A stretch of DNA of 64,000 bases, taken from positions 2,976,001-3,040,000 of the forward strand of contig CM060849.1 in assembly GCA_030737835.1 (NCBI GenBank). The letters are read 5' to 3'. Shown in pieces: positions 35,458 through 57,060 of the stretch. Each line of letters starts with the position of its first letter. Positions within the stretch are counted from its first letter, which is position 1. This DNA is from Acorus gramineus. Lineage: Eukaryota; Streptophyta; Magnoliopsida; Acorales; Acoraceae. The position numbers and the translations under genes were made by a program. The notes beneath the pieces are model-generated. The model worked only from the letters and a program-made list of their open reading frames with translations, was not told the origin of the DNA and searched no databases.

Positions 35458-36812
35458 CAACGGATGTGCGACTTACGACTACGTGCATCCAACGCTTCCC
35501 GAAGGGTTGGATCGAACAACTCATTAATACCCAGATCACCGCACGTCCGGTCTACGAGATCTGCAAAACACAACCAATGATCCACAATTAAAATATGGAA
35601 CCTCCTGACACACATATAAGCCTAATTCATGAAAACCCTTACTCGTGATACTTTCCACAACATGCATAACAACTCCTTGACACACAATCGAGCAAAACTG
35701 CTAAACCTGCTACAACCATCCCTACTATTTGATCTCCACAGCACCAAATACACATCCAAAAATTATGAAATAAATCATACACATTCTTTGACATGCTGGG
35801 ATCATAATCCCTGAAGACATTATAACCTAATTTTGCCTCTACAAGCCCGAACTAAAATATTTCCAGAAATTGGTCAATTGCCCCGCGAATCTGGACAGGC
35901 CTTGCAAATCAGGTTATAACTTACAACACAGATATCATAATGACACCAAATTTCATATATAACAACTAGACACATAGAGGATCATATTACATGCCGACAC
36001 AATCCCAAAAATATGCCTCTAATTACTAGTTTCACATATATCTTTATAAGACAGAGATCTGCCTTACCAAAAGAGGGGGAGGGAAATGGGGAGATGCGGG
36101 GCTCTCAACACACCCACGACCACCTCAACCACCACCACCACTACCACCACCTCATCAGCATCTCCTAAATCCCTTCATGGCTGAAAACAGGGCTGCAAAG
36201 GTGGCATGAGAAGGAGATAGAGAGAAGAGAAACAAGGCACACCAACAATACATGAACACACAAGCACAAACACCTACCTTTCACTTCTTTTTCCTTTTCA
36301 CCTTCACCTTCTCCTTCTATCTCTTCTTCTTCCCTTAAAAACCAACAAAAGGAGCAGAAAAAAGGAGAGTGAAGAGGAGGGCACGTTGAGGGAGAGAGGG
36401 GAGAGAGAGAGAGCAAAAGTCACTCACAAATAGGGCTTTAAATGGGGAAAAAGTGAGTTGGTGGGAGCTTTGACAAGTCAACCCAACCAAGCTAAAGGAC
36501 AAAACCATTTGACCATGGTCAATGGTCTTTTTCGACTTGTCAAAGTCTCCAATTGACTTGGTCATAGTCCCCCCCACCCCTAACAAGCCAGCATCGACCA
36601 AAATCTGGATACGATTCGAAATTGCATAATTTTCTAAAACGTAACCGGAATTCGATGAAATTTCTATGGGCACTACTACTAAATGGTACCTCGACCCATA
36701 ATATGCAGTTAGATTTTCAATCAGAGTACTCCAACTCCCACAGGTCGCTAAAAACTAAAATTTTAGCGACTCCGATAGGAAAAAAAAGGCTCCAAATGAC
36801 ACAGGCATAACA
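35458..36812 (-). repeat. Tekay-type LTR 'Q', 5' part, reverse (alpha variant)
   Basis: The reverse complement of the LTR 5' region contains the alpha segment at about 35562-36075 and ends at the LTR start (complement of TGTTATGCC) at 36812. The next bases, CGAGT (36813-36817), would be its target duplication in the Tat gag sequence; the matching left copy is not found because Q is truncated at 25804. Confidence 0.88.
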
Positions 36813-37636
36813 CGAGTCCCTGATCAAGGGTCAGCTCCGAGATAGTACACGCCCGGTTCATCCGGATATGTGCCGCCTCGGCAAGCCAATCAAAACTTCA
36901 TTCCTCGATCAGTACCCGCCCCCGTGCCGATAAGACAAAACCCAGTAGCCCGAAGTCCTCTAGTCCAGAGCCCCATAATTCAAAGCCAAGGCCAAACTAG
37001 GACTCCCCCTGCTTATTCCGCTCCCCCAAGAGCGCAAAGCCTAACCCCTAGGCCGCCTACATAGAGCTCCTACAATAAAGTCACTTCCCCTTCCTCCTAT
37101 GGCCCAAGATGGTTAAATAGAAGGGATTGTTATCCACCGCTCCTGGAAACCCAAGCAAACATCTTCAGGGCCTTGGTAAAGACCAATAGTATTTCTTTGC
37201 CTATAATCAGACCTTCGCCTCTTGGTGCCGATACTGCTCGTTACTACCCATACCATCAACATCATGGTCACACCATTGAACAGTGCTTTTTATTCAGAGA
37301 CATCGTTTATGACCTCGATAAAGAGAGACGCCTGATTGAGCCACCATCAGGGGACTCAAAAATGGCCCAACTACGAAACCACTAGGGACCCACTTGAATT
37401 CTTTACCCAAACAAAACCAAACCCTAGCGTGTCCCAAACCTGTAATCAATGCCCAAACACAAGACCAAACCAAACATGCAAGCCTTCATAGAAGAACTAG
37501 AAAGCCTGAGTTTTGAAAGCATCTACACCATAGGGGCCACAAACCACGAAGAACTGCCCAGGATCATTCACGGTGGCCTAATTCTTCAAGCAACTTCCCC
37601 CATCTTCCCAAGCCCCATAAAGTCCCTCCCCTCTCA
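36813..37636 (+). pseudogene. Tat-lineage gag fragment
   Basis: Translation gives a proline- and glutamine-rich stretch (from 36870) and then, in another frame, a segment reading RYYPYHQHHGHTIEQC (about 37230-37285). This is the zinc-knuckle-like C-x2-H...GH-x4-C segment of Tat/Ogre-type gag, with the first cysteine apparently replaced by tyrosine. A downstream segment (from 37449) reads FIEELESLSFESIYTIG. Several stops and frameshifts break it. The 5' part of gag is cut off by LTR Q, and the 3' part stops at the inversion breakpoint near 37636. The rest of the element lies inverted at 54762 and below. Confidence 0.8.
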
Positions 37637-39121
37637 TATAGTCTAAGCATGGTCATACTTCTTATCTACACAAGTAGTATAGCTAGGACGCCCCATCGAT
37701 GCGCGACGCACGACTACGGGCGTCGAGCACATCTCGAGAGAGGGGGGGGGGGGGGGTTGGGCCAAACAACTCACCTCAATCCGGGACCTCGCGCATCCCA
37801 TCCGACGAGATCTGTAAGGTAAGGGCATCAAATTTGGTGAGTAACAACACATTATAACACTTAGAAATTACTAGAAATACCAAAGACTTAGACATGCACG
37901 CATACGGGCTCGCACGCATGCGAGCACGCGCGTACGCACGCATGCCCGAGTGCCCCAGCACCTACCCGAGCCCCTGGGCAGCCCCGCGCATGCCCCAGCA
38001 CGCGCACGCGCGCGCGCTCCCGCATTGGCACCCTGCCGCATGCCCAGGCCCCCCAGACAACCTGCCCCGTGCGTGCGCAAGCTCGCGCGCACCCGCGCGC
38101 ACTTGTTCGCACGTATTGCGCGCACCCCGCTCGCTGCCAGCGTCCGCGCGCACCCGCGCGCCCGCCTGCGCCTGCCAGTGCCCCTCTGCGCGCGCGTCTC
38201 CGGCACGCACGCGGACAGACCCCTGCGCGCCCCCAGCCATTCTTAACCCCTTTTTAACCCCTCCCCAACCCCTCACACACCCTAACCCATCTACCTAGCA
38301 TGCATGACTTCCCAACAACCCCCTAAGCCATGAAAACCAAGAAAAGAAGGGGAAGAGCTCACCTAGGGAGGGGGAATGAAAGGGGGAGATTCGGGATCCC
38401 TCGATGCACCCGCTACCACCTCAACCACCACCACCACTACCACCACCTCCACAGCCCTCCTCAGCCTTTTTTGGCTGCAAATCAGGGGGGGAAAGACATG
38501 AGAGGGGGCTTGAGAGAGGAGAAACCACAACAACAACAACACATACACAAAACTCACCTCTTGTTTCCTTCTTCACCTTCACCTTCAATGGATTCTTCCT
38601 CCTCCTTCTCCACACACAAAGAGAGGAAAAAAAAGAGACCAAGAGAGGGAGAGAAGATGAGATCCACGAGTTGGGAGAGAGGGGGAGAGAGAGAGAGGGC
38701 AAAATGGTCATTTCCATGCCCAAATAGTGTTTTTGGGTGACCATAAGGATGTGGTGAGGTTAGGGTTAGGCTCACCCTCACTCAACCACTTATTTTTGCT
38801 TTATTGGGAAGTGTGCGGAGAAGCACCACACACTCGAAAATATCTCGCCCACCGAAACCCAGTAACGGCCAAACCCGGATGCGATTCGGAACTGCATATT
38901 TTTCAAAACGTTACCGGAATTCGATGAAATTTTTATGGGTAGTACGAAACAGTACCAGGACCCATAATATGCAGTTAGATTTCCAATCAGAGTACTCTAA
39001 CTCCCGCAGGTGGCTAAAAGCCAAAATTTTAGCTACTCCTATCGAAAAAAAAAAAGGCCCTGAATGACCCAGATGTGACCAAGGCTTAACCGAAATGGCT
39101 CCAAATGACACAGGCATAACA
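37637..39121 (-). repeat. Solo LTR 'p', 5' half, reverse (beta variant)
   Basis: The reverse complement starts TGTTATGCCTGTGTCATTT at 39121 and runs to the block GCATGCTTAGACTATA, where it stops at the inversion breakpoint. The missing half is at 54763-57060 on the plus strand. Its target duplication is CGTGC (complement of 39122-39126), identical to 57061-57065. It contains the CpG-dense core at about 37890-38245. The two halves together give about 3.78 kb, a complete LTR. Confidence 0.92.
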
Positions 39122-40475
39122 GCACGGCTATCTTCGAGAAACCCTCGACAAACCTCTGATAATAATCCGCCAAAGCCAGGAAGCTCTGAATCTTGGTGGG
39201 GTTCGACGGTCGCCGCCAATTCGACACGGCGAGCGTCTTGTCCGGGTCCACAGATATACCCTCGCCGGAAATCATGTGGCCCAGAAAGGCCACACGCTCC
39301 AACCAGAACTCGCACTTACTGAACTTGGCGAACAACTGATGTTAGGCCAAAGTCTCCAAGACAATGCGAAGATGGTCAGTGTTCTCCTCAAGACTCCTCG
39401 AGTACACTAGAATATCATCGATGAAGACTACCACAAAGGAGTCGAGGAAGGGCCGAAACACCCGGTTCATCAGATCCATGAAGGCCGCCGGTGCATTCGT
39501 CAACCCAAACGGCAGTACTCGGAACTCGTAGTGCCCATAACGGGTACGAAAGGCCGTCTTCGGAATATCTGACTCCCGGATCTTCAGCTGATAGTAGCCC
39601 GAACGGAGATCGATCTTTGAAAAGACACGCGCTCCCTGGAGCTAGTCAAACAGATCGTCAATCCGTGGTAAGGGGTACTTGTTCTTCACGGTCCGCTTGT
39701 TCAGCTGCCTGTAATCAATACAAAGACGCAGCGAACCGTCCTTCTTCCGAACAAATAGAACAGGGGCTCCCCACGAAGAGACACTCGGACATGCGAAGCC
39801 CTTCACGAGCAACTCTTCCAGCTGCTCCTTGAGCACCTTCAGCTCTGCCAGGGCCATCTGGTACGGAGCCCTCAAAATCAGCTCAGTCCTTGGAATCAGA
39901 TTAATCTCGAACTCGATCGCGCGATCCGGCGGTAGTCCCGGAAGATCATCGGGAAAAACCTCTGGATATTCTGCCACGACCGGAGTCTGACTGATATCTG
40001 CCCGCAGTGGTGCATCCTCCTCAGCAATGTACGCCAGAAAACCCTCACATCCTCCCTGAAGGAGTCTCCACGCCTGGATGGATGACACAAACCCCAAAGG
40101 GGCTATGTCTCGATCGCCCACGAACTGGAAAGATCTCTGACCAGGGATGTGGAAGGACACCGACTTGGCAAAACAGTCGCTACTGGCGTGGCTAGCTGAG
40201 AGCCAATCCATTCCCAGGATGGCGTCGAAGTCCGTCATGGCGAGTTCGACCAACTCCAATGGAAACTCATGCTCCGCAATCGCCACGGTACACCCCTGAT
40301 AAACAGAACGGAGGAGAATACGGTCTCCGACTGGCAATGATATCTCCAGCATAGCATCAAGAGGGGCGGACACCACGCCCATCCGTCTCGCGAAAATGGG
40401 AGACACGAACGAGTGCGTAGCCCCAGAATCAAATAGCACATAAGCAGGAAGCTGGGAGATTAGAACAATACCTCA
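39122..40475 (-). pseudogene. Tekay-type protease and reverse transcriptase (5' half of pol)
   Basis: One reading frame encodes an aspartic protease with catalytic [10 protein letters not shown] near 40435. It then encodes a reverse transcriptase with the motifs [35 protein letters not shown] and [12 protein letters not shown], plus the catalytic FIDDILVYS (its FIDD at 39414-39425). The frame is open except for in-frame stops at 40473-40475, 39642-39644 and 39342-39344; no frameshift is seen. The frame ends at 39122, where solo LTR p begins after a codon for valine in IAV. The same frame resumes at 57061 on the other strand. In an intact element this part would process Gag-Pol and copy the RNA inside virus-like particles. 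Confidence 0.95.
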
Positions 40476-41867
40476 GACAATGCTACCCGAAGCCTGCGCC
40501 TCCTCGGTCGTAAGTGCTGCAACACGACCCTGAACAAGCTGCGGCTGAGGAGCAGGGGCACGCCTCGCAGGCTGCACTGGCTGCCTCCTCTGGTCAATCC
40601 GACCACCCTGTGGCTGCTGTTGCTGACGCTGCGGCTGCTGCTGCTGGCGTGGCTGCTGCTGCTGCGGTTGCTGCCGAGGCACAGGAGGTCAGCTCGCATC
40701 AGGGCAATCATAGGAAATATGTCCGACCCGCTGACAATGGTAACAACGTCGCGTCTCCGGTCGCCTAGCCTGGAATGGTACTACAGCAATGGGTGCTGGA
40801 CCCCGCACTGGCACCACATAGACTGGAGTAGCGGCGGCCGCTGGCCGATCAAAGAGGGGCCGCTTGTTCTTGCGACGTCCTTGGTCCTGGCTCTTGGGGG
40901 GCCTCTGGTCCGCAGAAGGGGTTTGAACCCCCAAGGGAACCCCAAGGTCTCGCTCGACTGTCCTCGCACGAGACACCAAGTCTGAGTACCTTGAGAACGC
41001 CTGAGAGGTGACGTGCACCCTGATGGTGCTAATGAGACCCATCTCGAACTGACGGCATCGCGTCTCCTCATCCATCACTAAGGCGGGGGCGAACCGAGAA
41101 AGCCTCGTGAAACGTGTAGAGTAATCAGCGACTGACATGGAGCCCTTCGTCAGCTGCTTGAACTCCCGCATCACGATCTGACGTGTCAAAAACGGGAAGT
41201 ACTCCTCCAGGAAGTAGCTTCGGAATCCGGCCCATAGAAGTTGCCCCACACCCTCAGGGATGTGCATCGATCGGGTAGCCCACCAGTCGGCGGCGCTACC
41301 CTTCAACATGAAGGTGGCCAGTGAGACACACTGGCGGTCGGTGTAGTGCATGGTCGAGAAGATCTTGTCTATCTCCATCAACCAACGCTCGGGGGCAAGG
41401 GGGTTCGTCGACAAGCCATGGAACTCGGGAGGGTCAAGCTTCAGAAAGGCGGTGAGGCCGGTCTGATGCACACGTGCCGGCGGTGCCGCAGCCTCTAGCT
41501 CCACCTCCCCCTCCAGGGGATCCTTAATTCCCTCTACTGGAATCTCCACTGGGACAGGGGGTACTTCGGGCACCACCGATGGATCTGCTACCAAGGGGAC
41601 CTGTGGGACTGCCTCACGGGCCGCTCGCAGCTCCTGGATCTTTCACACCTGCTCAGCCAATGCCCTAGTCTGGGCCTCCAATGCCCTAGTCTGAGTCTCC
41701 AATATATCTGCTATACGAGCATAAGCACGCTCCCAAGCAGGAGGCTCGTGCGCTGGTCCTAGCCCAATAGCCGAGGACCCTTCAGTAGGCTCCTCGCCTC
41801 TGGTAGGTTTAGAAACCTCCAAGGCTTGAGGGGGACCACATCCACGCATCCGTCTGTGAGGAGGCAT
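40476..41867 (-). pseudogene. Tekay-type gag (capsid and nucleocapsid)
   Basis: The start ATG at 41867 reads MPPHRRMRG, with the same start context as the decayed copy at 3098. The N-terminal part is coiled-coil-like (TQTRALEAQTRAL). It is followed by the retrotransposon gag capsid domain (KLDPPEFHG, AERWLMEIDKIF, ADWWATRS, YFPFLTRQIVMREF, MSVADYSTRF). A CCHC zinc knuckle, CYHCQRVGHISYDC, lies at about 40704-40745, and a glutamine-rich linker comes before protease. Stops at 41643-41645 and 40689-40691 are in frame, so gag, protease and pol share one frame, as usual for this lineage. Confidence 0.93.
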
Positions 41868-41962
41868 ATCAGCAACCTAAGAAACAGACAATAGGATCAA
41901 AATACTCATACAGAAATCCTAGGACTCATCTCTAAGAAAACAATTGGCTTTGACAGGACCAG

Positions 41963-41974
41963 GCACTGATACCA
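41963..41974 (-). other. Primer binding site, tRNA-Met type
   Basis: The minus strand reads TGGTATCAGTGC, 5 bases after the 5' LTR end. It differs by one base from the site at 2989-3000 (CAGAGC), probably by mutation. Confidence 0.88.
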
Positions 41975-41979
41975 ACTTT

Positions 41980-43381
41980 TGTCACACCCCAGGGCGGCCG
42001 TCCCCGATACGTGGCAAATATATATAATATCAGCAGTCCATACACGAGATCAATAAAAGACTCTAAACAACATCAAAGGTAATAACACAATTAACAATGT
42101 AGCTGACATAATATACATACATATAACGGAAGCTTAAACGACTAAGTCTGTAATTCAAAGACATATTACAGACCAGAATACATAATCAACTGTCCTGTGA
42201 GAGCCAATATAAAACAAAGACATCCACATACAAGTACTGTGCCCAAGCACGAGTAACAATACATACAAGGAAAAGGGGGATGTTGATGGCCTCTCACTCG
42301 CAAGACCCAAAACGCGAACGCTGCTCCGCTACTGGTGTGATGCCTCGGGGAGCTCCTCCTTCAGATCCGACTCAGCGACAACTGGAGGAAAAAGATATGC
42401 GAGGGGTGAGCCACACGCTCAGTGAATGGTACAATCCATGCAACACAACTCATATTTAACCTTTAAAATCATTAAAGTCCCTAAGATGGGAGTAACTACA
42501 CAAATTGGTGGGTCGTACCGACGCCGGCCCACCACACCCTCACCCTCACCCTTTAGAGGTGACATAGGACTTTTGGGAGAGATTAGACTGCTCTACACCC
42601 TTGGTCCACCGGTAGCCCTTTCCCCGGGTAGCCTCTACCTGGTATACTCCCATGATCAGTACGTTTCCGAATGCATCGGTAGTACCTACGGATGGGAGCC
42701 CTCTGTCAGGACAGCTTTTCCCAACCCGGGTAGTTCCTACACGGATCCAACGAAGGGGAGAAAACAATCTACACTCACGGATACGATCCTCTTGGATCCG
42801 TCGACAACGGTTACTAAACACTGATGAGGTAACGAATTCTCCTTCTTTTTTTCCTTCAAAACACACACACACACACACACAAACAAGAGGGAGAGGGAGG
42901 CGTGAGAGGTGGTGAAAGAGAGAGAGAGAGAGAAATCACTTTTTCTCAAATGGGGGGGTGATGAGAAGGGAAAAAGGGGGTGGTGAACCTAAGTTAAACT
43001 CACCCACACACATCAAAAATAACCAAAGTTTTCTTACCTATTAAGCAAGAGGGGGGGGGTGAGGTTACCCAAGGTTACCATAACCACCAAAATATCCCAA
43101 CAGTATTCCACCTAACAAACCAGAAATGACTGAAACCCGGATACGATTCGGAACTGCATAATTTTTAAAACGTTACCGGAATTCGATGAAATTTTTATTA
43201 GTACAAAATGGTACCAGGACTCATAATATGCAGTTAGATTTCCAATCGGAGTACTCGAACTCACGCAGATAGCTAAAAGTCCAAAATTTTAGCGACTCCA
43301 ATCGAAAAAAGAAAAATTGGAAAATGGCCAGAAAAGACCCAAATGTGACCAATAGGCTAAAAAGTGACACATATATAACAC
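41980..43381 (-). repeat. 5' LTR of the split Tekay element, with ~1.3 kb deletion
   Basis: The reverse complement starts TGTTATATATGTGTCAC (43381) and ends GGCCGCCCTGGGGTGTGACA (41980). It matches the 3' LTR at 59147-61870 at both ends, but the part equivalent to about 59692-61019 is missing. The deletion joint falls at a shared GAGAA, suggesting microhomology-mediated loss after insertion. By eye the two LTRs differ by a few percent, mainly transitions. The target duplication AACGG adjoins it (complement of 43382-43386). Confidence 0.93.
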
Positions 43382-43386
43382 CGTTT
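43382..43386. other. Target site duplication AACGG, left copy
   Basis: The complement of CCGTT reads AACGG and matches 61871-61875 exactly. These are the two flanks of the Tekay element whose halves now lie 17 kb apart in opposite orientation. Confidence 0.9.
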
Positions 43387-43501
43387 GAAACCAAAAAACT
43401 TGGTTTTGATTCGCTTAATTTCACCCTAGATCACTCCTTTCTTCTGGATTTCAAAACCCTAAGAACTTTTGGGTTCTCGTTTTTCTTGTGAAATCGAGGA
43501 G

Positions 43502-46500
43502 ATGACGAAGGGGAATAGAACGGCTTCGATGATGCCTTAGGTCTTCCCAAGGGCAGAGTGGGGCTGCCTCGGGGTCTAGCTCGTCGGAGAGCAACGGGGC
43601 GGAGAGAAGGGTCGTGGAGGAGATGACCCAAATGGCGGAGGCGCCGTCCGGAGGTGCTGGCGCGGGTGTGGTCGGGGACGTGCCTTCGGGGGCTGTTCCG
43701 GGGGTTTCTACAGTTCCTAGGGGTGATGTGATTGGGTATACGGGCAAGAGGAGGCGCAGTGATCGACCGGTGGCAGCTGAAAGCGTTGGTTTGGAGGTTG
43801 GAGGATCGGCCAAGGGTGTAGCCGAGGAGGTAGGGGCTGAGGGGTTTAGTGAGGGTGTGAGGGCATCATTGGATGCCATCATAGGGATGTTGGATAGGGA
43901 GGCTACAGAGGTTAGGGCCGAGGAGGAGGCCTCGAGGGCCTTGGGGGTTTTTGAAATGTTGGCTTCCGGTGCGGTGGGCACGGAGGAAAGTGAGGGAGTT
44001 GGGGTTGGGGGTGAAGAGGCCATGGGTGTGGACACAAGGGCCACGGGGGCCGGTGCTGAGGTTGAGGCCGAGGAGGCCATGGCTGAGGAGGAGGGGGATG
44101 ATGAGGAGGGAGACGACGACGGGATGGACGATCCCGATGAGGCTGAGGTGGAGGCTCCTGGAGCCACCCGAGCCGTGATATGCCTCTATTTCCCTTTGTC
44201 TATTATTTTGTTCTAGATATATGTATATATATGTTTCGGTGGTATGAAATGTGTTAGAAGTATATATATGCGTCCTTTTAATAGGCATGCTTGTTTGTGT
44301 ATGAAAAATGATCACGGTGGGATTTCATAAGCATGCATTTCTTTATGGCTTATGTGGTGCTTCATTGTGTATAGAGATATGGTGTTGGTTTTGATAAGAG
44401 ATGTATGTGTTTGTAAAAGGGAATAACTCTTTGAAATAATATGCCTTTAGGTGTGATAGTAATATAGGATGGCATGTAGGCATGCGTTTATGATCATGGT
44501 GGGAGTGTTATAAGCATGCTATTTCATAGTCTATAGAATGTTTTAACATGCTTGCATAATGGGTTTGCATATATAGGTATGGTGTTGTTCTAGTACAAGA
44601 GATGGTGGTGGGTTTGCATATGCCTGAGTATGTGAGTTTTTTAGGGGAGTGACAACTTTTGAAATAGATATGCTTTGATGTGATAGTGGCATAGAAAGGC
44701 AAGTAAGCATGTGTTGATGGTCACGGTGGGAGTTTTATAAGCATGCTTTACAGGGATGAATAGGTTTATATATATAAAAAAAAAAAAGAAAATGTCTTTG
44801 TGTAGTTTTAAGCAAGTTAAATCTTGAATAGTCTTTGGTCGTCTTAAGAGATAGGCCATGGTGGGATATTTTTGGGGAAAGTACAGGTGTATTTCATGCT
44901 TTGTTTAATTTGAATAATTTTCTAAGCATTCGTTTAGGATTCTCACCTTTCAGACGTCTTTTGTTTCGGACTAACCCCCCTTCTTCCGTTGTTTCAGCGG
45001 CCGAATCACATTCAAGCCTTGTGGCACGGCACGAAGAGATGGTACTCCGCCTTGGGGCAGTGGGAGAGGGACGTGGTGGATGGAGCGGGCTTCCGCTCCT
45101 TCTTTTTGATTGAGCCCTTTCACGTTCATCGCCCATATCTTGAGGCATTGGCGGAGCGATGGGATCCGGAGAGCTGCACATTCATCCTCCCCACCGGTTC
45201 GGTGATGCCGACGCTCGAGTATGTTGAACGGATCACGGGCCTCCCAGTCCTGACTACAAGGTGCTCTTCCGGGCGTTGATTGGGGATTGGGAGTACGTGG
45301 TGCGCGAGAGGTCACTGAACCAGATTCCCCTTGGTCAATTGTCGTGGCAGTATGGCCTTGGCTCCTTCACGCAGCGTTAGAAGGGTGAAGCTGCGGCTAG
45401 CTTTGAGATGAGACGGCTAATGATTGAGGCGAGAGAGGCGGCCGCGTGCCCACAAAGGGCACGGAGGGAGTTGAGGGCGTTCTTCCTCTATTTTTTTTGG
45501 CCGGGTCCTCTTCTCGACAGCCTCTGACAAGGTCTCCTCCCACTTCTTGTTGCTGATGGGGGACTTGGCGACGATGGGCCGCTTCGCTTGGGGTGCGAAC
45601 ATGCTGGCTCATCTCTTCGTAGAGCTGTCGAAGAAGGTGAAGAGGGCCGGGGGCAAGAATTTTAGCGATTTTGCAGCATTTCTACAGGTATAATTAGCGA
45701 AAATAGAAATGATTTGATCTTTGTTTCTTCACTTCACCTGACTTTGGTTTTGGTTTTCCTTCTACATATCGCCATTGCTCGTCCGACCCAGCTGATCTTC
45801 AACCGCACCCTCCCTTGGGCTATGAGATGGCCGCCTCTAGGGGCTTCTCGCTTACGTCGCCTCGCTCAGTTCCAGGAGGCCTTCCGCGCTTTAAAGGAAG
45901 AAGAGGTATATATCTTTTGGATTTCTTGCTTGTACTTGATTTTCTTTTGTCTGAGCTCTCTTCTTTATTCCGTGGTATTCTTTGTTGTAGATGACCTCGA
46001 GACCCTATACTGAGGAGGCAGTCCCTGAGGAGCTGTCGCGGGACATCTGGCTGATCTTCTTCAACGAGGTGGTCTTTCATGCAATCAGCCGGGTGGTCCA
46101 CCAGCTTGGGTACCATCAGTGGGTGCCTGATCCTCTATCGAAGCATCCCCCAATCCTTGTGGCCAGAATTCCTTGGGATACGAACCTCCCGAGGAACTAC
46201 GCAGTGTACGTGGCGGGATGGGATGCGAGAGGGACCTTGGTCGAGCGTCATCCCGAGGTGGTTGGCAGCGAGGAGTACATGGCCTGGTTCCGTCAGGAAT
46301 ATGTTGACATCCTTGGGACTATGGAGGAGGAGATCCCGGACGCTTACGTAAGAAAAAGCTCTCTCTCTTCTCTGTCTTTTCGTTTCTTCTACTCCATATT
46401 TAAAAGATGTGTTCTTGGTGCAGGCTGAGCTGAATGAGCTGGAGAAGAAGCTCAAGACTGCCAATGAGCACCTCCAAGCACGGGCCGGGCAGGTAGAGGG

Positions 46501-47657
46501 GTTGTGGGAGCAGAGGCGACGCTTATAGGACCAGGTTCGGGTCCTTGAGGCTTAGGTGGATGCTCTGTCGAGAGCAAGAGTTGATGGCACTTCTTCCTCC
46601 TCTGGTCCTCCTCCGACCAGTGCCTTCGATCGAGAGCTCGAGTTGACAAACGAGCTAGGCATGGTTTGAAGTGAACTCCTGGCTACTCGGATGGCTTGAT
46701 CTTGCCAGGGAGAGGGTTGCCAGGGCTGAGGGTGAGGTGGACCAGTTGAGGTCTGAGAGATCGTCAAGGGAGGAGGTGTTGGGCCAGTTGCGGTCCGAGA
46801 TGGTGTTGGGAGAGGAGGAGTCATCCACCTTACGCCGCGAGCGAGACTCCCTCCAGGCTAGAGTGTCGGAGTTGGAGGTGTCGGCCGGCGTGCCTGGTGG
46901 TTTGATGGGAGACCTGGTCCGTTCCCTCCAAGCAGATGGGGATAGAGATCGGGAGGCTCTCAAGGTCTCGGAGGTGAGGGCACGGGAGCTGGAAGAGAGG
47001 TTGAATGTCGTCGAGGATTGACCCAGAAGCATGGAGAGCCGCCTTCATCAGAGGTTGGAGAGAAGAGATCGGGATATGCAGCAAGTCCACCTCTGGGAGG
47101 CCACCATGAGGGGAAAGCTGGTTGGCGGAGGGTCTATGACGGAGGCGGACCTCGACTTTCTCCCCCTCGAGCCTGACCATTCTGTCTCTGCCTCCCTAGC
47201 CACCGGAGCTTCTTTGAGCAGAGCTTCCCGTCCATCAGTGATCCAGAGTCGTGATATATATGCGAGGGCGGCTTCATCGGTGAGGGAGGCTCCTGCTGCT
47301 CTAGACGCTCCAGCGGTTCGATCTTCTCCTCTGCTACTACCCCCTTCTCAGCCCGGTCAGGACGTTCCTCCTTCGACCCAGCCTCCCGGGGATGACAATA
47401 CTCCGAGGTATAGTATTTGTGTCTTGATTTTGGTAGAAGAAATGTATATATGCAAGGAATTCATTCTTTTCTTCTTTTCTTTTAGCTTAGGTGATTATTT
47501 TGATGATGGACAGCTCAAGACATCTGGATCAAGGCTTCTTTGGTGGACCTCTACCTTTTTACTTGTTTTATTTTATAAAACACTCTTTTGGTTTATTTTA
47601 GGATTGTTTTCTGTTTATGAACAAACTATACCTTTCTTTTGGTGTATGGATGGGTGA
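43502..47657 (+). pseudogene. Plant mobile domain (PMD) accessory gene, antisense to Tat pol
   Basis: A multi-exon gene. Exon 1 is about 43502-44174 (MTKGNRTASMM, then a frameshift and an acidic Gly/Ala/Glu-rich tail). Exon 2 is 44998-45687, with acceptor TTGTTTCAG and donor CAG|GTATAA. Exon 3 is about 45747-45905, exon 4 is 45991-46347 (acceptor TTTGTTGTAG, donor GTAAGA), exon 5 is 46424-47407, and a last exon starts near 47486. Exon 2 encodes the PMD core (RPNHIQALWHG, YLEALAERWDPESCTF, MPTLEYVERITGLPV, then FAWGANMLAHLFVEL), exon 3 TLPWAMRW, and exon 4 PYTEEAVPEEL and VVHQLGYHQWVPDP. Exon 5 is a long heptad-type coiled coil with a Ser/Pro tail. Junction phases agree between exons. Frameshifts (near 45255 and 45490) and stops in exon 5 show decay. 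The PMD family includes plant MAIN/MAIL proteins and domains carried by transposons. Its position between pol and the 3' LTR, in antisense, matches accessory genes of Tat elements such as maize Grande. Confidence 0.85.
44285..44760. repeat. Degenerate tandem repeat inside intron 1 of the PMD gene
   Basis: Units of roughly 200 bp start at about 44285, 44479 and 44704. Each opens with GCATG(C/T)..., then a CACGGTGGGA or CATGGTGGGAG block and ATAAGCATGC. The third unit is partial. It lies in the putative long first intron (44175-44997). Confidence 0.65.
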
Positions 47658-49544
47658 TTTCTAATTTGGTTTGAAAGGGTGCTCATTAGTTCTAATTTGG
47701 TTTGTGTATGTGTGTGGTGAATGGTTTGGTATGTGATTTTGGTTTCTGCTGCTGTTTGATTCGTTTTTATACAGGTTTTATGAATGTATATGTATATGAA
47801 ATGCGTGTATGCAGGTTTTGGGAAGAAATATTCCAGATAGGTCTCAAAGGTTTGAAGAGTTGATTGTCAATGGGGACTGATAGTGCAGAGTGGGCAGCAG
47901 GTGAGGGGCAGCTAGTTGTGTTTAGCCGCCCTAGGACTGGTGGAATTTACCTGTATGGAGACGGCTAGCCTATTTCAGCCGTCTGATGGCAGGCGGCTAG
48001 TCGGGTTTAGCCAGCCCTGGCCTGGGACAATTTTCTAATTCTACCATTTGTCTGCTACTACTGAAAGTCCTTGTGAGTGTTTGTTCAACCTTCAAAACTA
48101 GTAAAAACATTCTTTCCATGGGCCAAGTGTTAAATCTATCCGGATTGTGCCCCTGCACTGACTTTCAAGTCCTACTTGTTCAAATTGTCAAGGGTGACAA
48201 CCCATCTAAAGTAGTAAAGCAAAGAAAAAGATGCGAGAAACCGCGTCCGGTATACAAAGGAGGATTATGTGAGAATGGAAAAGTTTTAGGTGTGTATGAG
48301 AGTGGGGTAGTTTTCCTTCTCATGTGTGTGTGGAAGGGTATGAAATGAAAGTAATTCTTTTGGCATGGGAGTTAATTGTGGTATTTGAGAAAATTGAATG
48401 CCTAAATGTTTGGAAAAGGAAAATGCAATCTTATGCATAAGTGTGAGTGACATAAGGGAGCATTTTAAGTCTTCAAAGGATCTTTTATGTGGGAGGGCAA
48501 TGTTTTCAATTTCCTAAAGTAAAAGATGCCATCAAGTGCTTGAAGAGGGTCCTTGTGGTCACCCATGTCCAAACCAGGATTGTATTTTAAAGGTGTTGGC
48601 TTCAGGTGTTAATTTCTCAAGTTCATGGTTCTCAAATGCTTGATCATATTATTCTAAACATGCTGGGAAATCCATGAATGCACCAAGATTTAAGTCAAGT
48701 TAAGTGAACTCATGTGAGTGTGTGCTGTTGTAAACATAGGAAAAAGTCTATCTTTGGTTGAGATTTCGTCTTTCCAAGTAGACATAGTTCAATTCAAACT
48801 CCATAGCAAGAAATAAAAGGGTGGGGGTGAATGGGGTAAGAGTAATATCTTCCTTTGGGGCAATATTTTAGAATTGTCCCAGTCTGGCATATGTCTTACT
48901 TTCTAGGTCCCTCTGGCTTTCTTCTTTTTACCACTTCTTTATTTGGGTGGAGAGTACAGCTTGAGGGGCGTATACCCGTGTTTCGAGTGGAGAGTACAAT
49001 CCGTTTGCTTGGATGTGTACTAGTATAGCCTTTTGTTTAGCATATACTGTGCGAAAAGGCGTTTGCGCCTACCAATGTAGAGAGTTTAACCCGTTGTCTG
49101 GGTGTTGTTTTGATTTTTGGCCTCTCATTGCCTTTCTTTTGTTTTTTTGTTTTGTTTTGAGGGGGGGGGGGGGGGCTTTTCTGTTTTTCACCCCTGTTCT
49201 TTTCTGCTTCCCCTCTAGAAGTGTTTATACAGTGCCAGAGCCAGTTTTGGGACATATGCTAGCTCTGGGTAATCCCTCATTTTGCCTTTTGGTTGATACG
49301 AGTGGAGGCGAGAATAAGGGGAGATGCTTTGGGTTTACAAAATTGTCCCAGTCTACAGGGTAGGCAATTTCTCCCTTTATCAGGTAAACCAGTCCCTAAG
49401 TCATACTGGTGTGATGAAGGTGGCATGAGTGGTGAATATATGAGTTCAAATAAAATACAAGTTATCTTTGAGAGTCTTACAATTCTATCATCAGGTTTAA
49501 ACACTGGAAATAACAGAAAGGAAGAATAAGATTTCTCAAGTATT
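47658..49544. other. Tat element spacer between the PMD gene and the end of pol
   Basis: No convincing coding region is seen on either strand. The stretch separates two convergent genes: the PMD gene ends from the left and Tat pol ends from the right. It contains two AGCCGCC motifs (47924-47930 and, reversed, 47992-47998), a G-run near 49160, and a short direct repeat of GTGGAGAGTACA around 48950-48995. Transcription terminators of both genes would be expected here, but no clear poly(A) signal decides them. Confidence 0.55.
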
Positions 49545-50763
49545 GAGAGTTTCATGCATGGAATTTCTTTAGATAAAGTGCATTCCACGAACCTGAGACT
49601 TCGACTCCTCCGGCGTCCACCAAGCAATAGGCATTCCCGGAATAGGCATGGGTGATCACATAGAGTCCCTCCCATGTGGGTTGCAGCTTGCCTTTGGGGT
49701 GGGGCTACCTTGATGGCATGATTTGTTTAAGTACTAGCTCCCCAATTTTAAATTTTCTCTCTATTACTTTCTTTTCAAATGCCCTTGCCACCCTCCTCTG
49801 GTAGGCCTGGGCATGGTCTGTGGCTCTTAACCTCTTTTCGTCTAATAGTTCAAGGCGTAGCAGGAATGCTTCTCTTCTCTCTTCGATCTGCAGGTCTTCT
49901 TCTAATACTATTCTTGAGGATGGGATAAGAATTTTGTAAGGTACTACCGCTTCTACCCCGAATGTGAGTGAATATGGGGCCTGGCCGGTGGGTGTTCATA
50001 TAGAGGTTCGGTAAGCCTAGAGGGCATCAACTAATTTGTCTGGCCAGTCAGTAGCTTTGTGGGTTTCTACTGTCTTATTTATGATTCTGAGCAAGGTTTT
50101 GTTGGTGGGGCCTCTGCTTGCCCATTTCCCTGGGGGTAATATGGTGTGGAGTGATGAAGCTCTATGTGGTGTTTATCACACAGATCTCAGAATTCTTGGG
50201 AAATGAATTAGGGGCCATTATCAGTTATGATCATTCTGGGGGTGCCGAACCATGCAAGGATATGGGTACGAACGAAACGGGCCAAGGTGGAGCTTTTGAT
50301 CAATAAATAGGACTCGGCTTCGGCCCATTTGGTAAAATATTCTGTGGCAGTGGGGATGAAAGCTTTCTGGGTGATTTTCTACTATGTCTCGAAATGGTCC
50401 TACTACATCTAATGCCCACATAAAAAATGGCCATGGTGAAGTCGTGGGATGCAAGGAAGATGCTGGTGCATGTATTTTGTTGGCATCAGTCTGACATTGG
50501 ACACAGCGTCGAACATATTTGTTGCAATCCCCTTCGAGTGTGGGCCAGTAATAGCCCATTCTTAGTACCCTTTTTGCTAGCATTTGAGCATTGACATGAC
50601 CTCCGCAGACTCCAAAGTGAGCTTCTTCCACAATGGTGTGTGCTTCCTCATCGTCTAGGCTTCAGAGTAACTCCCCGTTGAAGGATGCTTGAAAGAGTAT
50701 TCCCCCTTGGAGGCAGTATTTGATCGCTATCCTTTTAACTATCTTCTGATCGCCGTCAGTAGC
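49545..50763 (-). pseudogene. Tat-lineage integrase
   Basis: The minus strand encodes the integrase zinc-binding segment: EEAHFGVCGGHVNAQML, then GYYWPTLEGD, and C-x2-C in CVQCQTDANK, at about 50490-50635. A core follows with WALDVVGPF and, after a frameshift near 50380, MIITDNGP and YYPQGNGQAE. The C-terminal part reads WEGPYV, SGNAYCLVDA and ALYLKKFH in shifting frames and ends near 49545. It catalyses cDNA insertion in intact relatives. Several frameshifts and stops inactivate it. No chromodomain is visible, in contrast to the Tekay integrase. Confidence 0.88.
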
Positions 50764-51370
50764 TTATTCTGGAAATGAACCATCTTCGAGGTAGTTTTTG
50801 ATATCAAAGTACCATGGATTTCCATCATCCGTATCTTCTAGATCAAGGGCAAGGATTTTTATGGTACTAGTGATTCCTTCTGTTTGGTTTTGTTGATTTA
50901 GGAGGTTTTGAGTTTTACAATCTCGAAGTTTGGTGGCAAGTGATGAAGCTAATGAGGCTAAAGAGTCTGCAAGAATATTGTCTGTTCTAGGTATAAAGAT
51001 GTAGGTGACCTTACAAAACTGTTTCAATAGGATTATAGCAAGCTCCCTATATGGTTTTAATTTTGGGTCCCTAGTCTGACACTTTTTCAAGGTCTGGCGA
51101 ATTACTAAAAGTGAGTCTCCAATAATGTCTAGATCTTTGACCCTCAGAGCTAGAGCTATCTTCAAACCTGCTATCAGAGCTTCATATTCTGCAATATTGT
51201 TGGTGGCGTTGAATGTGAGCTGAAACGCCCGTGGGATAATGACGCCTTCAGGGGAGATTAATGCTATTCCTATCCCTCTCCTATCCCTCTCCCTTGTTGA
51301 TTAATTGCTCCGTCGAAGTACAATGTCCATGTCTTCCTATTTTTCTCTTCGATGAGTGCAAATATTTCTT
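50764..51370 (-). pseudogene. Second (archaeal-type) RNase H of the Tat element
   Basis: The minus strand reads TWTLYFDGAINQQGRG near 51340, then after a frameshift NNIAEYEALIAGLKIAL and DIIGDSLLVIRQ. Further on it reads YIFIPRTDNILADSLASLA. This set of motifs (FDGA, E in AEYEAL, GDS, and the ADSLA segment) marks the extra RNase H typical of Tat/Ogre elements, and it separates this element from the Tekay elements nearby. A stop follows at 50764-50766. Confidence 0.9.
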
Positions 51371-52640
51371 CGTCTGGGAAGTCGGTCCTCACTGGTTCGT
51401 AATCAGGGAGAGGGAGCTGAGCGAGATGGTCGGCAATGGCTTGACCTTTAATGGACTTCTGAGTGGCGTAAGTGATGTCAAACTCATTTAACTGGACTTG
51501 CCATCAGGCCAAGCGACCAGTTAATACGGCTTTCTCGAATGGGAACCTTACCGGGTCTATTTAGGCAAAGTAATTGACTTTGTGGGCAAGAAAATAATGG
51601 CGTAGCTTCTGGGAAGCCCATACTAAAGCTAAGCAAGTCTTTTTTATGGGAGGGTAGGCTTGTTCATATTCAATTAATGTCTTACTTAGATAGTAAACAG
51701 CCTTTTCTTTCCTTCCCATGTCATCGTGTTGTGCGAGCACAGCACCAATGGCCTCCTTGGTTGCTGCTACATAAAGAAGTACGGGGTCGTCCGGGTACCG
51801 GGGATGAGAGGACTGGGGGATTAAGGAGGTATTTTTTTAAGCTATCGAAGGCCTTTTGGCATTCGTTATCCCAGTTAAACTTAACTCCCCCTTTTAGTAG
51901 TTTGTAAAAGGGGCGGCATCGTTCGACATGTTGTGAGATGAATCTTCTGATGAATTGTAGCCGACCGATGAGTCCTCTTAATTCCTTTAAGTTCTTGGGT
52001 GGGGGCATTTGGGCAATGGCCCTTGCTTTAGTTGGATCAACTTAAATCCCCCTCTTGCTTACGATGAACCCCAAGAGCTTCCCCGAAGAGACACCAAAGC
52101 AACATTTCTTTGGGTTCATCTTAAGTGAAAATTCCCTGCATCTTTGTAGCACTTGTTTGAGTATATCCGCATGCCCTATTCGAGTCCTAGATTTGACTAG
52201 GATGTCATCTACGTAAACCTCTACTAGCTTGTGCATCATATCAAGAAATATTGAAGTCATCGCTCTTTGATACGTTGCACCCGCATTTTTAAGCCCGAAA
52301 GGCATTACTGCATAGTAGTAAGTCTCCTAGGGATTGGTGAAGGAAGTCTTTTCCTGGTCATCTTCTGCCAACCGAATCTGGTTGTATCCAGAAAATCCAT
52401 CCATAAAAGAGAGCATTTCATATCCTGCCGTGTTATCGACAAGGAGATCAATATGCGGAAGTGGGAAATCATTCTTCGGGCATGCTCGATTGAGGTCCCT
52501 GAAGTCAATGCACACCCGAATATTGCCGTCCTTTTTGGATACCGGAACAATATTGGCTACCCATTTCGGGTACAAGACTACCCAGATAAATTTAGCCTGG
52601 TGGAGTTTGTCCCTCATCTTTAATTTTTAATGCCACCTCC
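51371..52640 (-). pseudogene. Tat-lineage reverse transcriptase and first RNase H
   Basis: Reverse transcriptase motifs lie in one frame from about 52617: WVANIVPVSKKDGNIRVC, IDFRDLNRACPKNDFPLPH, MDGFSGYNQI, MPFGLKNAGATYQRAM and the catalytic YVDD (52204-52215) in EVYVDDILVKSRT. The connection and RNase H region follows (MPPPKNLKELRGLIGRLQF, CRPFYKLLKGG, CQKAFDSLKKYL). In-frame stops lie at 52327-52329 and 52042-52044, and the frame is lost after about 51790. Later fragments include GQAIADHLAQLPLPDYEP. The sequence is of the class that keeps PLPHID-type segments, as in Tat and Athila. Confidence 0.92.
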
Positions 52641-53670
52641 GGATGAAGGCGCCTTAGCTTCTGTTTTACTGGTTTTGTGTTAGGCTCTAAAATTAATCGG
52701 TGCTCGACCAAAGAGGTATCGAGTCCAAGCATGTCTTTGTATGATCAGGGGAAGGCGTCAATATGCTCACGTAGTATTTTAATTGGACTTTCTTTTTCAT
52801 TGGGCTTCAGCTCCGCACTAATTGGAAATGACCTTGGGGCTAGCTTCAGTCCCCAGGTTTAGTTCTTCCACCTTCTAGTCTACTTCTTCCGTCCTCTCAT
52901 CAAACCTCTGTAGGCTCCGCTTAAATTCTTTGGAGATGTCTTCTTCTTCTTTGCTGTCTTCATCGCAGATTTCGAAACTCCCAAACCGTCATCTAAGTTT
53001 TCTATATTATCTAGGTCTGGTTCTTCTATAACTATTATAGACTCAAATTTTTCTAGGCCAAAAAAGGTCCCACTATGATTTTTTATGTGGTTAATGTTAT
53101 GGTCAGGTATCTGACTTCTAGAGGGCTTGACTGTTTAAGTGGGGTACTGGGGCTGGAATGTTTAGTTTGGCTGGCTAGATATCGCAAGTTATTTAGACGA
53201 TCAGAGTCATCACTAAAGGGGTGCCATGCTGGGGTGAAGTCATCTTTGTCAAATAAGGACCCTAAGGTTTTAGTTTCCATTTTTGTTTTGTTGTTTTTTT
53301 TTGTTTCTTTTTTTTTTGGTGTTTTTTTTGTTTTTTGTTTTTTTTTTTAAAGGAAAAGACAACTGATATTTACAACTTACTGGATTAATTTAGGTGCTTC
53401 AACCGACCTTCCTCCAACAGCTGGCGCTCCTTTGTTGTGATGCTTGCGCACGGCGAGGAAAGAGTGCTTGGTCAGCTGGAGTTTCACCGACTGGTGGTGT
53501 GTCTAAGAGTTTATCGGGGTGTGGAAATAACCAGTTAAGGGAGCCCGAGAGATAGTCCGGCTCTCTTTCCTGGATAGAGGTTAAGGGACGAGGATACATG
53601 GCTTCTTCAACCTGCTCTGTGGTTGTTCCCTTTATGAAGTGTTCATATAGTCCCCAATTACATTTCCTTT

Positions 53671-54462
53671 TTAAATCAATATGTTGGTTAGATGAGCCAA
53701 GTTCTTATCTAGCCAGGCTGGGAGTTTGATGGGTTCTAGGATCCCACCTTTTAACCCTAATGTTTTTCCTGGGATGTGACCCATGGCTTTCATCATGTGC
53801 CAACCTGGGTTTTTAGGCTTAGGGTGATTTGCCTTTACAGCACTGGTGAGGGTGTCTTGAGGGTTCAGCCAATTGGCTGGGAAGTCTAGGATGTGGATGG
53901 TGGTTTCTTTTGGCCTTGGGTTGATGGTTTCGATAGTGGTAGTCTCATTATTAGTGAACCCTGATTTGGGTTCCTTAATTGCGTCTCCTTGTATTTTGAG
54001 TATTTGATTTCCCAAGGGGAATTTCAAACACTGGTGCACGGGAGAAGAGACCCCTTTATTTAGGCTAACCATTTACGTCCTAGGATCATGTTATAGTCAG
54101 AGTCCATTTCTAAAACATATGCTTCGACAATTGTTTCTAAGGACCCTATTTTTAATGGGAAGTCTTTAAAACCAAGAACTGGGCGAGCTGTCTTATCATA
54201 GGTGAATATCCGAATATCTGTCTCCAGGAGCGTGGTGATATGTCCGCCAATGTGTTCAAAGGTGCGTAGTGACATGAGGTTTACTCCTGCACCGGTATCG
54301 ACCAGTACTTTATCTATGGGATGCCCGTTAATATCTACTGTGATGCATACGGTTGAGGTGTTGATAACTTTATCGCAGACTTCTTATTTGGCCCTAAATG
54401 TTATCATAGGCCCCAGTCCCGCAGAAGCCAAGGCTACTGGCATGTTTAAGGTGGAGATTTGA
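53671..54462 (-). pseudogene. Tat-lineage protease region
   Basis: The minus strand encodes DTGAGVNLMSLRTFE, with the catalytic DTGA at 54288-54299, and later YNMILGRKWL near 54070. A frameshift there leads into a segment reading NKGVSSPVHQCLKFPLGN and, downstream, a glycine-rich MGHIPGKTLGLKGGILEPI segment like that linking protease to reverse transcriptase in Tat/Athila elements. The frame ends with a stop at 53671. Confidence 0.85.
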
Positions 54463-54762
54463 GGGTCAACTTGGACTCTTCCTAAAAACAACCTTATGGC
54501 CTGTTGGTGGTGTTCCGAGGTTTCGATCAACTCTAGGATAGAGATCTTTGCGGGGATTCTTCGTAGCTGGTCGACGATGTCAATCCTATCCCCGACACTT
54601 GCTTCCTCGGTTTCTGTTTTGGGTATGGGACGTCTATAGGTGGGGACAGCATTAAAGATTCTTCCGGCCCTAGTTGTATGATGGTTTAGCGTATCAACCG
54701 TGGTCTGGGGAATTTGGTTTTTTAATAGGCTAAAGGTTTTTGTTAACTAGCAGGATGGGGCT
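54463..54762 (-). pseudogene. Tat-lineage gag C-terminal part, at the inversion breakpoint
   Basis: On the minus strand a frame is open from about 54745 downward, with segments RAGRIFNAVPTYRRPIPK and DRIDIVDQLRRIPAKISI. It leads into the protease frame. The RIPAKISILELIE segment resembles the linker upstream of protease in Tat elements. The sequence stops abruptly at about 54762, where LTR p continues on the plus strand. It is the natural continuation of the gag fragment ending near 37636. Confidence 0.7.
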
Positions 54763-57060
54763 TAATATATTAGATATTTTGCATGCTAGGCTTATATTAC
54801 ATGTATTGTATCCATGTATGAATAATTGTGTTGTATGCGCCCCTCTAGTATGGGCGTGTATTGCTGTAATGTGTATCGATGTACAGAATATGGCATGCCT
54901 TAGGTAGTATTGTAATACTACTCCCACCATATTAATTGGAATATCCAGTATGATTAAGTCTGGGTTAATAACGGGCACCTGCCTAATATTCCCTTGCGAT
55001 AAGACTCGAGGGCGTGGTGTAGTTGTTGCGCCCATGCTAATGGGGCAAAGCTATGACCGACTTCATGAGATGATGATCTCTCTCGCCCTCTCCCTCTGCA
55101 CGGACTGAGTAAGTAGATGCGATTTCCTACTCGACTCAGGTTCGTTTGGAATATTGGCATGCACCTATTAGTGCGCGAGATCGCGCTTGACCCTTACCTT
55201 TTAAGTTGGTGATATCCAACGCATGCTTAAGTTAGGCCTTGTGTGCTTATGTGATTAATGACCATGTATGCATGTTGTATGATTTATTATGATGTAAATC
55301 TATGATTAGGGAGTATCCCTATGATTAATTGATATGTGATCGTGCATATGGTTCATGCACATAACTAAGATTAAATTCTCCTATAAAATATATGCGCATG
55401 TTAAAACTAATTAGGCCTATCTGAAATAGGCGTGGGTATGACCCGCTGTCGGGTTGTACCTTATTAGTTAGAGCGCTAGCGATGTAATCGCCCCGTGCAT
55501 CCGAGCGATGCACTCGTTTGGAATTCAGGAGAATTCATTATCTTATCGGTTTTGTTAAGCCGGTAGTTGGGGCATTAAGCTAGGCCTACCCGTGCTAGGC
55601 GTGTATATGAACCGCCTGTTGGGTTATGTGCCCTGGGATTATTTCTGCGTGAGAGCAGAAGCAACCCCCCTTATGTCCGAGCGACGAAACCGTGTGAGAG
55701 TACAATAGTGTTCGCTATCATCGATATGTGATTATCGAGAGTAGTTGTTTTTCCATTGGGTTCGCTTTGCGAACGTGGAGTGTTTCCTCCCAATGTCGTC
55801 CGTGTTGAAGCAGCCCAGGTTGTAGCTGTCCTGACAGAGGGCCCCTATCTGTAGGTATTATCAATGAATGCGGCAAGATGTACTGATCGTGGGGGTATAC
55901 CAGGTAGAGGCTACCGGGAGAGGGCTAACGAATGATATTGCGAGCGTGGAATCGTTCTCCCCTTCGTTGGATCCGATGTAGGAACTTCTCGGCGTTGGAA
56001 AAGCTATCCTGACAGAGGGCTCCCATCCGTAGGTACCACCGAGGCGTTCGGAAGCGTACTGATCGTGGGAGTATACCAGGTAGTGACTACTCGGGGAAAG
56101 GGCTACCGGTGGACCAAGGGTGTAGAGGAGTCTAATCTCTCCAAAAGTCCTATGTCACCTGTAAAGGGTGAGGGTGAGGATGAGGTGAAGACACGTCGCC
56201 GCGTGACCCATTCGTGGTTCGTCCGTTCCCATAGTTGTTGGGTCCGGTTGCGTATCGATGTTCAAAGACATCGTTGGGCAGTTATCTCGATGTAGATGAT
56301 CCAGTAGTGTTGTGTAGACCAGTAATTCCGGGTCTCGTCAACCAACGGTATGGTCTCTCCCCAAGAGACCCAAGAGTCTCCCTCCGGGAGTGAGGGTGAG
56401 GGTGAGGTTGGTGATCCAGTAGTGTTGTGTGAACCAGTAATCCCGGGTCTCCTCGACCAACGGTATGGTCTCTCCCCAAAAGACCCAAGAGTCTTCCTCT
56501 GGGAGTGAGGGTGAGGGTGAGGTTGGTCGCGCCGTCGCGTGACCCTGTTATCCATTGGGTTTCTACCCATGTTTTTCCTTGAAAGGAAATTGTGTTAGCA
56601 TTGAACTGTTGTATGGTGATTGGTTTCCAGCCACTCACTGAGCTTGTAGCTCACCCCTCGCACACTGTTTCTTTTCGGAGGCAGTGTTGGGCATGGAGCG
56701 GGAGCTTTCCTGTGGCGTGGTCTTATGGGCGTGGAGCGTTCTTCCGGCGGGTGGCGAGTGCGAGGCTGTCAGCAGTCCTAGAGTCATTTTATGTATTGTA
56801 AATCGTGCATGTGGCACATGTTGTATTTTATTTGGACTAGACTTGGCTCTCACTGGATAGTGATTGTGTATTCGAGTCTGTAATAATTGTTTTTTTTACA
56901 TACATTGTTTGTATATTATGCTTCTATTTTCTAGTCGGTTATCATTATCTTTGCTTTGCCACCTTGTGTGTTGTTGTTGGAGTCTTTATTGACCTCAGGT
57001 ATTGATAGCTGATATTTCATTATTGCCACGTCTCGGGGACGGCCGCCCTGGGGCGTGACA
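54763..57060 (+). repeat. Solo LTR 'p', 3' half, plus strand
   Basis: It starts at TAATATATTAGATATTTTGC in mid-LTR, exactly where the half at 37637-39121 stops, and ends at GGCCGCCCTGGGGCGTGACA (57060). The bases CGTGC follow (57061-57065), equal to the complement of 39122-39126. It carries the family's internal duplications around 56290-56520. Confidence 0.92.

What the first reader, a model, noticed from the sequence alone, without database searches (positions are those of the whole stretch)
37637..54762. One 17.1-kb inversion explains two split retroelements and a split solo LTR
Seen directly: Tat gag ends at ~37636 (plus) while the rest of Tat runs leftward from ~54762 (minus). A solo LTR is cut in mid-sequence into a reverse half (37637-39121) and a plus half (54763-57060) that abut without loss. 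The target duplications CGTGC (39122-39126, complement, and 57061-57065) and AACGG (43382-43386, complement, and 61871-61875) match perfectly, but only across the inverted ends. Flipping 37637-54762 repairs all of these at once and also restores the Tekay pol frame at the solo-LTR insertion site. The two breakpoints share only a few AT bases (ATAT) and an inverted 9-mer AAGCCCCAT (37610-37618; complement 54755-54763). That fits end-joining rather than recombination between long repeats, and it makes a repeat-driven assembly error less likely.
Basis: partly seen in the sequence, partly recalled or inferred. Interest (0 to 1): 0.88.

Follow-up and report, generated by a model that had tools for sequence, protein, structure and literature searches.

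The report
Small inversion through nested retrotransposons
In this plant-like genome a 17.1-kb block of nested, decayed jumping genes lies backwards relative to its flanks in the assembled sequence, most likely because two DNA breaks were rejoined the wrong way round; it is a cleanly documented example of an ordinary kind of rearrangement.

Summary
The finding holds. Flipping one block, about 37637-54762, explains four things at once: the split Tat element, the split Tekay element, the split solo LTR, and two 5-bp target duplications that match only across the block's ends. I tested this without rebuilding any element, using contiguous relatives from the same 398.6-Mb assembly. In 33 of 33 fetched relatives (7 Tat, 7 LTR, 19 Tekay, out of 117 non-self rows) the two window pieces lie side by side with one reversed.

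The relatives sharpen the breakpoints. The left junction has 4 bp of microhomology (TATA, 37637-37640); the right has none. The LTR break lost essentially nothing (within 2 bp). The inverted 9-mer AAGCCCCAT is mostly an old direct repeat of Tat, not a repair scar.

Simple end joining of two double-strand breaks fits best. No raw reads or un-inverted allele could be examined. The kind of event is well known, so interest is low to moderate. One of the 19 Tekay relatives turned out to carry its own 0.6-kb inversion.

The parts
36811..37640 (+). Tat element, gag 3' part (decayed), left of the inversion
37637..37640 (.). Left inversion junction; 4-bp microhomology TATA between Tat and LTR
   Evidence: 29 of 36 Tat rows end at 37640 or 37641 (the others at 37637-37639); 3 of 3 LTR rows start at 37637
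37637..54762 (.). Inverted block, 17,126 bp
37637..39121 (-). Solo LTR, 5' portion (1485 bp), inside the inverted block
   Evidence: TGTTATG start at 39121; homology to in-window and genome copies ends at 37637
39122..39126 (-). Target duplication CGTGC of the solo LTR, inverted copy
39122..41979 (-). Tekay-like Ty3 element, gag and protease, start of RT by eye
   Evidence: Pfam Retrotrans_gag, zf-CCHC, RVP_2 at 39642-41642; contiguous with 57061+ in 19 of 19 fetched relatives
41980..43380 (-). Tekay 5' LTR, inverted, about 1.3 kb shorter than the 3' LTR
   Evidence: Matches 59147-59694 and 61017-61870
43381..43385 (-). Target duplication AACGG of Tekay, inverted copy
   Evidence: finding's 43382-43386 is off by one
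44938..45690 (+). ORF pieces with plant mobile domain matches, antisense to Tat pol
   Evidence: PF10536, E 3.8e-07 and 6.2e-08, both just below the curated cut-off
50224..54762 (-). Tat element pol pieces (RT, RNase H, integrase; many stops)
   Evidence: RVT_3 at 50764-51300; Integrase_H2C2 at 50224-50661 and RVT_1 on a piece of the translation; the 91-residue piece near the break had no Pfam hit
54762..54763 (.). Right inversion junction, no microhomology
   Evidence: 2 of 2 Tat rows end at 54762, 37 of 37 LTR rows begin at 54763
54763..57060 (+). Solo LTR, 3' portion (2298 bp), right of the inversion
   Evidence: ends GTGACA at 57060
57061..57065 (+). Target duplication CGTGC of the solo LTR
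57061..58945 (+). Tekay RNase H and integrase part, not inverted
   Evidence: RT_RNaseH, Integrase_H2C2, SH3_Tf2-1, and rve below its curated cut-off
59147..61870 (+). Tekay 3' LTR
61871..61875 (+). Target duplication AACGG of Tekay
62618..62943 (+). Putative start of the Tat 3' LTR, plus orientation, cut at 62943 by another LTR
   Evidence: TGTAGATACC after a purine-rich tract; an in-window homology starts exactly at 62618 (25803->25637); the assignment to Tat is inferred and recalled

Best explanation
A 17.1-kb block (37637-54762) lies inverted relative to its flanks in the assembled sequence, and it likely arose when two double-strand breaks, one in a solo LTR and one in the gag-protease stretch of a Tat retrotransposon, were rejoined the wrong way round by end joining. 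Shown: the order and orientation of the pieces, the junctions, about 18 bp missing from Tat relative to most fetched copies, essentially nothing missing from the LTR, 4 bp of microhomology at one junction and none at the other, and no inverted match longer than 10 bp near the breakpoints. Inferred: the order of events, namely Tat in place, Tekay inserted downstream of Tat pol, a second Tekay-like element inserted in Tekay pol and reduced to a solo LTR, then the inversion. Also inferred: the repair route (classical or microhomology-assisted end joining), and that the assembly reports the real chromosome.
For: In-window LTR copies bridge the LTR break. Own-genome hits split exactly at the junctions. 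In one search, 36 of 39 non-self rows are Tat only and 3 are LTR only, 37 of 39 are LTR only and 2 are Tat only. No listed non-self row spans either junction (40 of 1413 and 40 of 1241 candidates were scored). Of the relatives fetched (the top 7 of 39 non-self rows, 7 of 39, 19 of 39), all 33 have the two pieces adjacent with one reversed. The Tekay pieces overlap by exactly the 5 bp of the TSD in 17 of 19; the alignment ends of L030 and L035 are trimmed. Three longer Tat stretches (L037 and L039 are the copies of L007 and L008; L038 is a further copy) run about 0.83 kb on the gag side and 1.4 kb on the protease side across an 18-bp spacer. The window holds no N. Other opposed LTR pieces in the window pair up by ordinary nesting with TSDs ATGAT and CAACG, so local order is otherwise coherent there.
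Against: No raw reads, second haplotype or related accession could be examined. One Tat relative, L003, has its own shorter form at this spot (3 bases between the alignments instead of 18), so part of the loss could predate the inversion. The two flanks of the Tekay insertion were not found contiguous in any of six fetched Tat stretches; that downstream region is diverged or rearranged there, so the AACGG match stands on its own. The search for a second, un-inverted copy with a locus-specific junction did not complete (last try).
Confidence: 0.92

Rival explanations
1. Assembly artefact: the block was flipped or chimerically joined by the assembler.
For: The region is repeat-rich, and no reads are available to exclude it.
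Against: No N in the window. The breakpoints share no inverted match longer than 10 bp within 500 bp on either side. The two junctions are reciprocal to within about 20 bases, with small-scale repair features (4-bp microhomology, 18-bp loss), which two independent chimeric joins or a scaffold flip would not be expected to produce.
Confidence: 0.06
2. Recombination between inverted repeats (for example oppositely oriented LTR copies) flipped the block.
For: Related LTR copies in both orientations are plentiful in the window.
Against: Each breakpoint joins Tat to LTR, which are non-homologous; the longest shared inverted stretch within 500 bp on either side is 10 bp. The 9-mer pair is unlikely to be the crossover site, because 18 bases of Tat sequence (37619-37636) lie between it and the left junction and are present in all five Tat copies printed.
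Confidence: 0.01
3. No inversion: the opposed pieces are unrelated copies inserted separately or nested in each other.
For: Opposed LTR halves elsewhere in the window (26668-36812) do arise by plain nesting.
Against: Two TSD pairs match only across the block ends, pieces abut in relatives of three different sequences, and the Tekay LTR pair spans the block boundary.
Confidence: 0.01

Closest known systems
Inversions from end joining of two double-strand breaks in plants (CRISPR-induced cases in PMC13094083, passages read)
   Same: Inversion by rejoining of two breaks; junctions seamless or with small deletions that the authors attribute to microhomology; that paper cites 2.9-18 kb inversions in Arabidopsis.
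   Different: Those are nuclease-induced; here the breaks are natural and the cause is unknown.
Rearrangements in maize centromere 10 (PMC4806543, passages read)
   Same: Partial, chimeric and deleted retrotransposons and inversions, for which DSB repair, often with microhomology, is proposed.
   Different: In the passages read, the inversions are inferred mainly from synteny and are much larger; here one small inversion is read nearly to the base from TSDs and split elements.
DSB-repair rearrangements in wheat (PMC7156093, passages read)
   Same: Junctions interpreted as classical, microhomology-mediated or synthesis-dependent end joining.
   Different: The junctions characterised in the passages read are deletions and insertions; the one inversion mentioned is about 6.5 Mb.

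Membership tests
Inversion by end joining of two double-strand breaks | Balanced: both junctions reciprocal, little sequence lost or gained | tested here: met
   LTR within 2 bp, Tat about 18 bp short
Inversion by end joining of two double-strand breaks | No long homology at breakpoints; at most microhomology | tested here: met
   4 bp left, 0 bp right; no inverted match longer than 10 bp within 500 bp on either side
Inversion by end joining of two double-strand breaks | Present in the chromosome, not only in the assembly | not testable with these tools
   No reads held
Inversion by recombination between inverted repeats | Inverted homologous repeats at both breakpoints | tested here: not met
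Ty3 Tat lineage | Ty3 pol with a second (archaeal-type) RNase H | tested here: inconclusive
Ty3 Tekay lineage (chromovirus) | gag with CCHC, PR-RT-RH-INT order, chromodomain-type C terminus | tested here: inconclusive
   Gag, CCHC, RVP_2, RNase H, integrase and SH3_Tf2-1 found; no chromodomain was reported for the pieces scanned, no tree made
Solo LTR | TG...CA termini with flanking 5-bp TSD and no internal region | tested here: met
   TGTTATG...GTGACA, CGTGC on both sides, 3783 bp in two pieces

The most novel reading that the evidence does not exclude
Young nested insertions, with their target duplications, act as base-level witnesses of small inversions that gene synteny never sees; if this locus and the 0.6-kb inversion met by chance in 1 of 19 Tekay relatives are typical, retroelement-rich parts of such genomes carry many end-joined inversions of 0.5-50 kb that are now annotated as truncated or chimeric elements.
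Probability: 0.3. Interest if true: 0.45.

Novelty: new member of a known kind. Interest (0 to 1): 0.22.

Why it matters
It gives one well-resolved natural repair event: related uninterrupted sequence known on both sides of both breaks, losses counted nearly to the base, and a relative order of five events. It also shows a general check: target duplications that match only across inverted ends reveal inversions where no genes exist to show them. By itself it changes no biological view.

Tried and rejected
Second inversions elsewhere in the window: opposed LTR halves at 26668-36812 looked like further inversions in the self-comparison, but LTR ends and TSDs (33285-29683 minus, ATGAT; 28221-35457 plus, CAACG) show plain nesting. 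Staggered-break duplication: I considered the 9-mer AAGCCCCAT at both ends as a fill-in scar; relatives show eight of its letters as an older direct repeat of Tat. Filler DNA at 37619-37636: rejected, because the Tat copies printed have the same letters. Tekay insertion site in Tat relatives: six stretches fetched; 43846 onward matched only in L042, more distal parts in L045 and L046, none in L043, L044, L047, and the 61871-62943 flank matched in none. Un-inverted second copy: not seen among 39 non-self rows each (best Tat-side identity 96% and 94%, best Tekay 95%; LTR-side rows reach 97%, but that LTR is a common repeat). Only 40 candidates are scored per search, so this is not exhaustive, and a search with the locus-specific junction 39000-39250 did not complete. 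One search (antisense ORF in Tat) returned nothing.

Identity figures, the Tat pol start and copy counts were also corrected then.

Full report
What was checked. The window is G000:C3:2976001-3040000 of a 398.6-Mb, 137-contig assembly and holds no N.

The split solo LTR. A self-comparison shows that intact LTR copies in the same window align first to the minus strand ending at 37637 and then directly to 54763 onward on the plus strand (7593-7729 then 7728-8235; 18514-20004 then 20003-20450). The two portions are 1485 and 2298 bp, begin TGTTATG and end GTGACA, and are flanked by CGTGC on both outer sides. Seven fetched genome relatives (L010-L016, the top 7 of 39 non-self rows) all run straight through, with a 2-bp overlap of the two window pieces.

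The split Tekay. Pfam finds gag, CCHC and protease on the minus strand at 39642-41642, and RNase H, integrase zinc-binding and the SH3-type tail on the plus strand at 57059-58942; the integrase core hit is below its curated cut-off. In 19 of 19 fetched relatives (L018-L036, the top 19 of 39 non-self rows) the DNA from 39122 on and from 57061 on is contiguous, with one piece reversed. In 17 the pieces overlap by exactly the 5 bp of the target duplication; in L030 and L035 the alignment ends are trimmed. The Tekay LTRs (43380->41980 minus; 59147-61870 plus) match piecewise: 8 differences in 541 sites and 27 in 854, gaps left out (K2P 0.015 and 0.032). They are bounded by AACGG at 43381-43385 (complement) and 61871-61875. 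With a substitution rate of 1.3e-8 per site per year (recalled, from rice LTRs, uncertain here) the combined 2.5% would put the Tekay insertion near 1 million years ago. The solo LTR and the inversion would be younger still.

The split Tat. The left query 37500-37760 gave 39 non-self rows: 36 cover only the Tat side (29 of them end at 37640 or 37641, the rest at 37637-37639) and 3 only the LTR side, starting at 37637. The right query 54620-54900 gave 39: 37 LTR only, all starting at 54763, and 2 Tat only, ending at 54762. No listed non-self row spans a junction; 40 of 1413 and 40 of 1241 candidates were scored. Two copies (C66, C58) appear in both lists and hold the Tat sides 18 bp apart. Longer stretches (L037 and L039, the same copies as L007 and L008, and L038 from C58) run from 36811/36813 to 37640, then 18 bp, then 54762 downward for about 1.4 kb. 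Of the seven Tat loci L002-L008, six have an 18-bp spacer once trimmed alignment ends are counted; L003 has a different, shorter form. With L038, 7 of 8 copies have it. A putative Tat 3' LTR start, in plus orientation as expected, lies at 62618 (the assignment is inferred).

Junctions and mechanism. The left junction shares TATA (37637-37640); the right shares nothing. Depending on where the TATA is placed, the LTR gained or lost at most 2 bp and Tat lost 18-22 bp. The 500 bp on either side of the two breakpoints share no inverted match longer than 10 bp (blastn, word 7). These features are those expected of two breaks rejoined by end joining, with slight trimming at one break. Junctions of nuclease-induced inversions in tomato protoplasts look alike: seamless or with small deletions that the authors attribute to microhomology (PMC13094083, passages). 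DSB repair, often with microhomology, has been proposed for inversions and broken retrotransposons in a maize centromere (PMC4806543, passages). PMC7156093 (passages) treats wheat deletions and insertions the same way. PMC2773423 and PMC2686159 (passages) gave background only.

A second case met by chance. In Tekay relative L020 (C61 near base 6096; fetched further as L048) the stretch matching window 57061-57652 is followed by 57667-58268 reversed and then by 58629 onward forward again. That is a 0.6-kb inversion with about 14 and 360 bp missing at its edges, by alignment ends. The other 18 fetched Tekay loci show this piece in one orientation only. It does not bear on the window's inversion but shows that such events occur elsewhere in this assembly.

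Order of events (inferred). Tat was in place; Tekay inserted downstream of Tat pol (AACGG); a related element inserted in Tekay pol (CGTGC); its LTRs recombined to leave a solo LTR; then the inversion. Whether the block or its surroundings 'turned' cannot be told and does not matter.

Limits. No reads, no second haplotype and no other accession were available. No near-identical un-inverted copy appears among the listed hits (best Tat-side identity 96% and 94%, Tekay 95%), but each search scores only 40 candidates, and the locus-specific search did not complete (last try). The empty Tekay site was not found in six fetched Tat stretches.

Noticed in passing
L048 3688-4288 (C61; also seen in L020): A Tekay relative carries its own 0.6-kb inversion in pol: the stretch matching window 57667-58268 is reversed between forward flanks, with about 14 and 360 bp missing at the edges.
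   Followed up: partly
44938-45276 and 45475-45690 (+): ORF pieces with plant mobile domain matches (PF10536, just under the curated cut-off) lie antisense and downstream of Tat pol, as if carried by the element.
   Followed up: partly
41980-43380 versus 59147-61870: The left Tekay LTR lacks about 1.3 kb present in the right one; the edges share a 5-bp GAGAA, which suggests a microhomology deletion.
   Followed up: partly
26668-36812: Three LTRs nested in one another in alternating orientation, with TSDs ATGAT and CAACG; by BLAST ends the two inner insertions fall at roughly LTR position 1400-1530, near where the inversion broke the solo LTR (1485).
   Followed up: partly
37738-37757: A long G run lies about 100 bp inside the left breakpoint.
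   Followed up: no
18514-24985 (+): An LTR start and an LTR end with matching CGTAT target duplications hold a further LTR start at 21198 between them.
   Followed up: no
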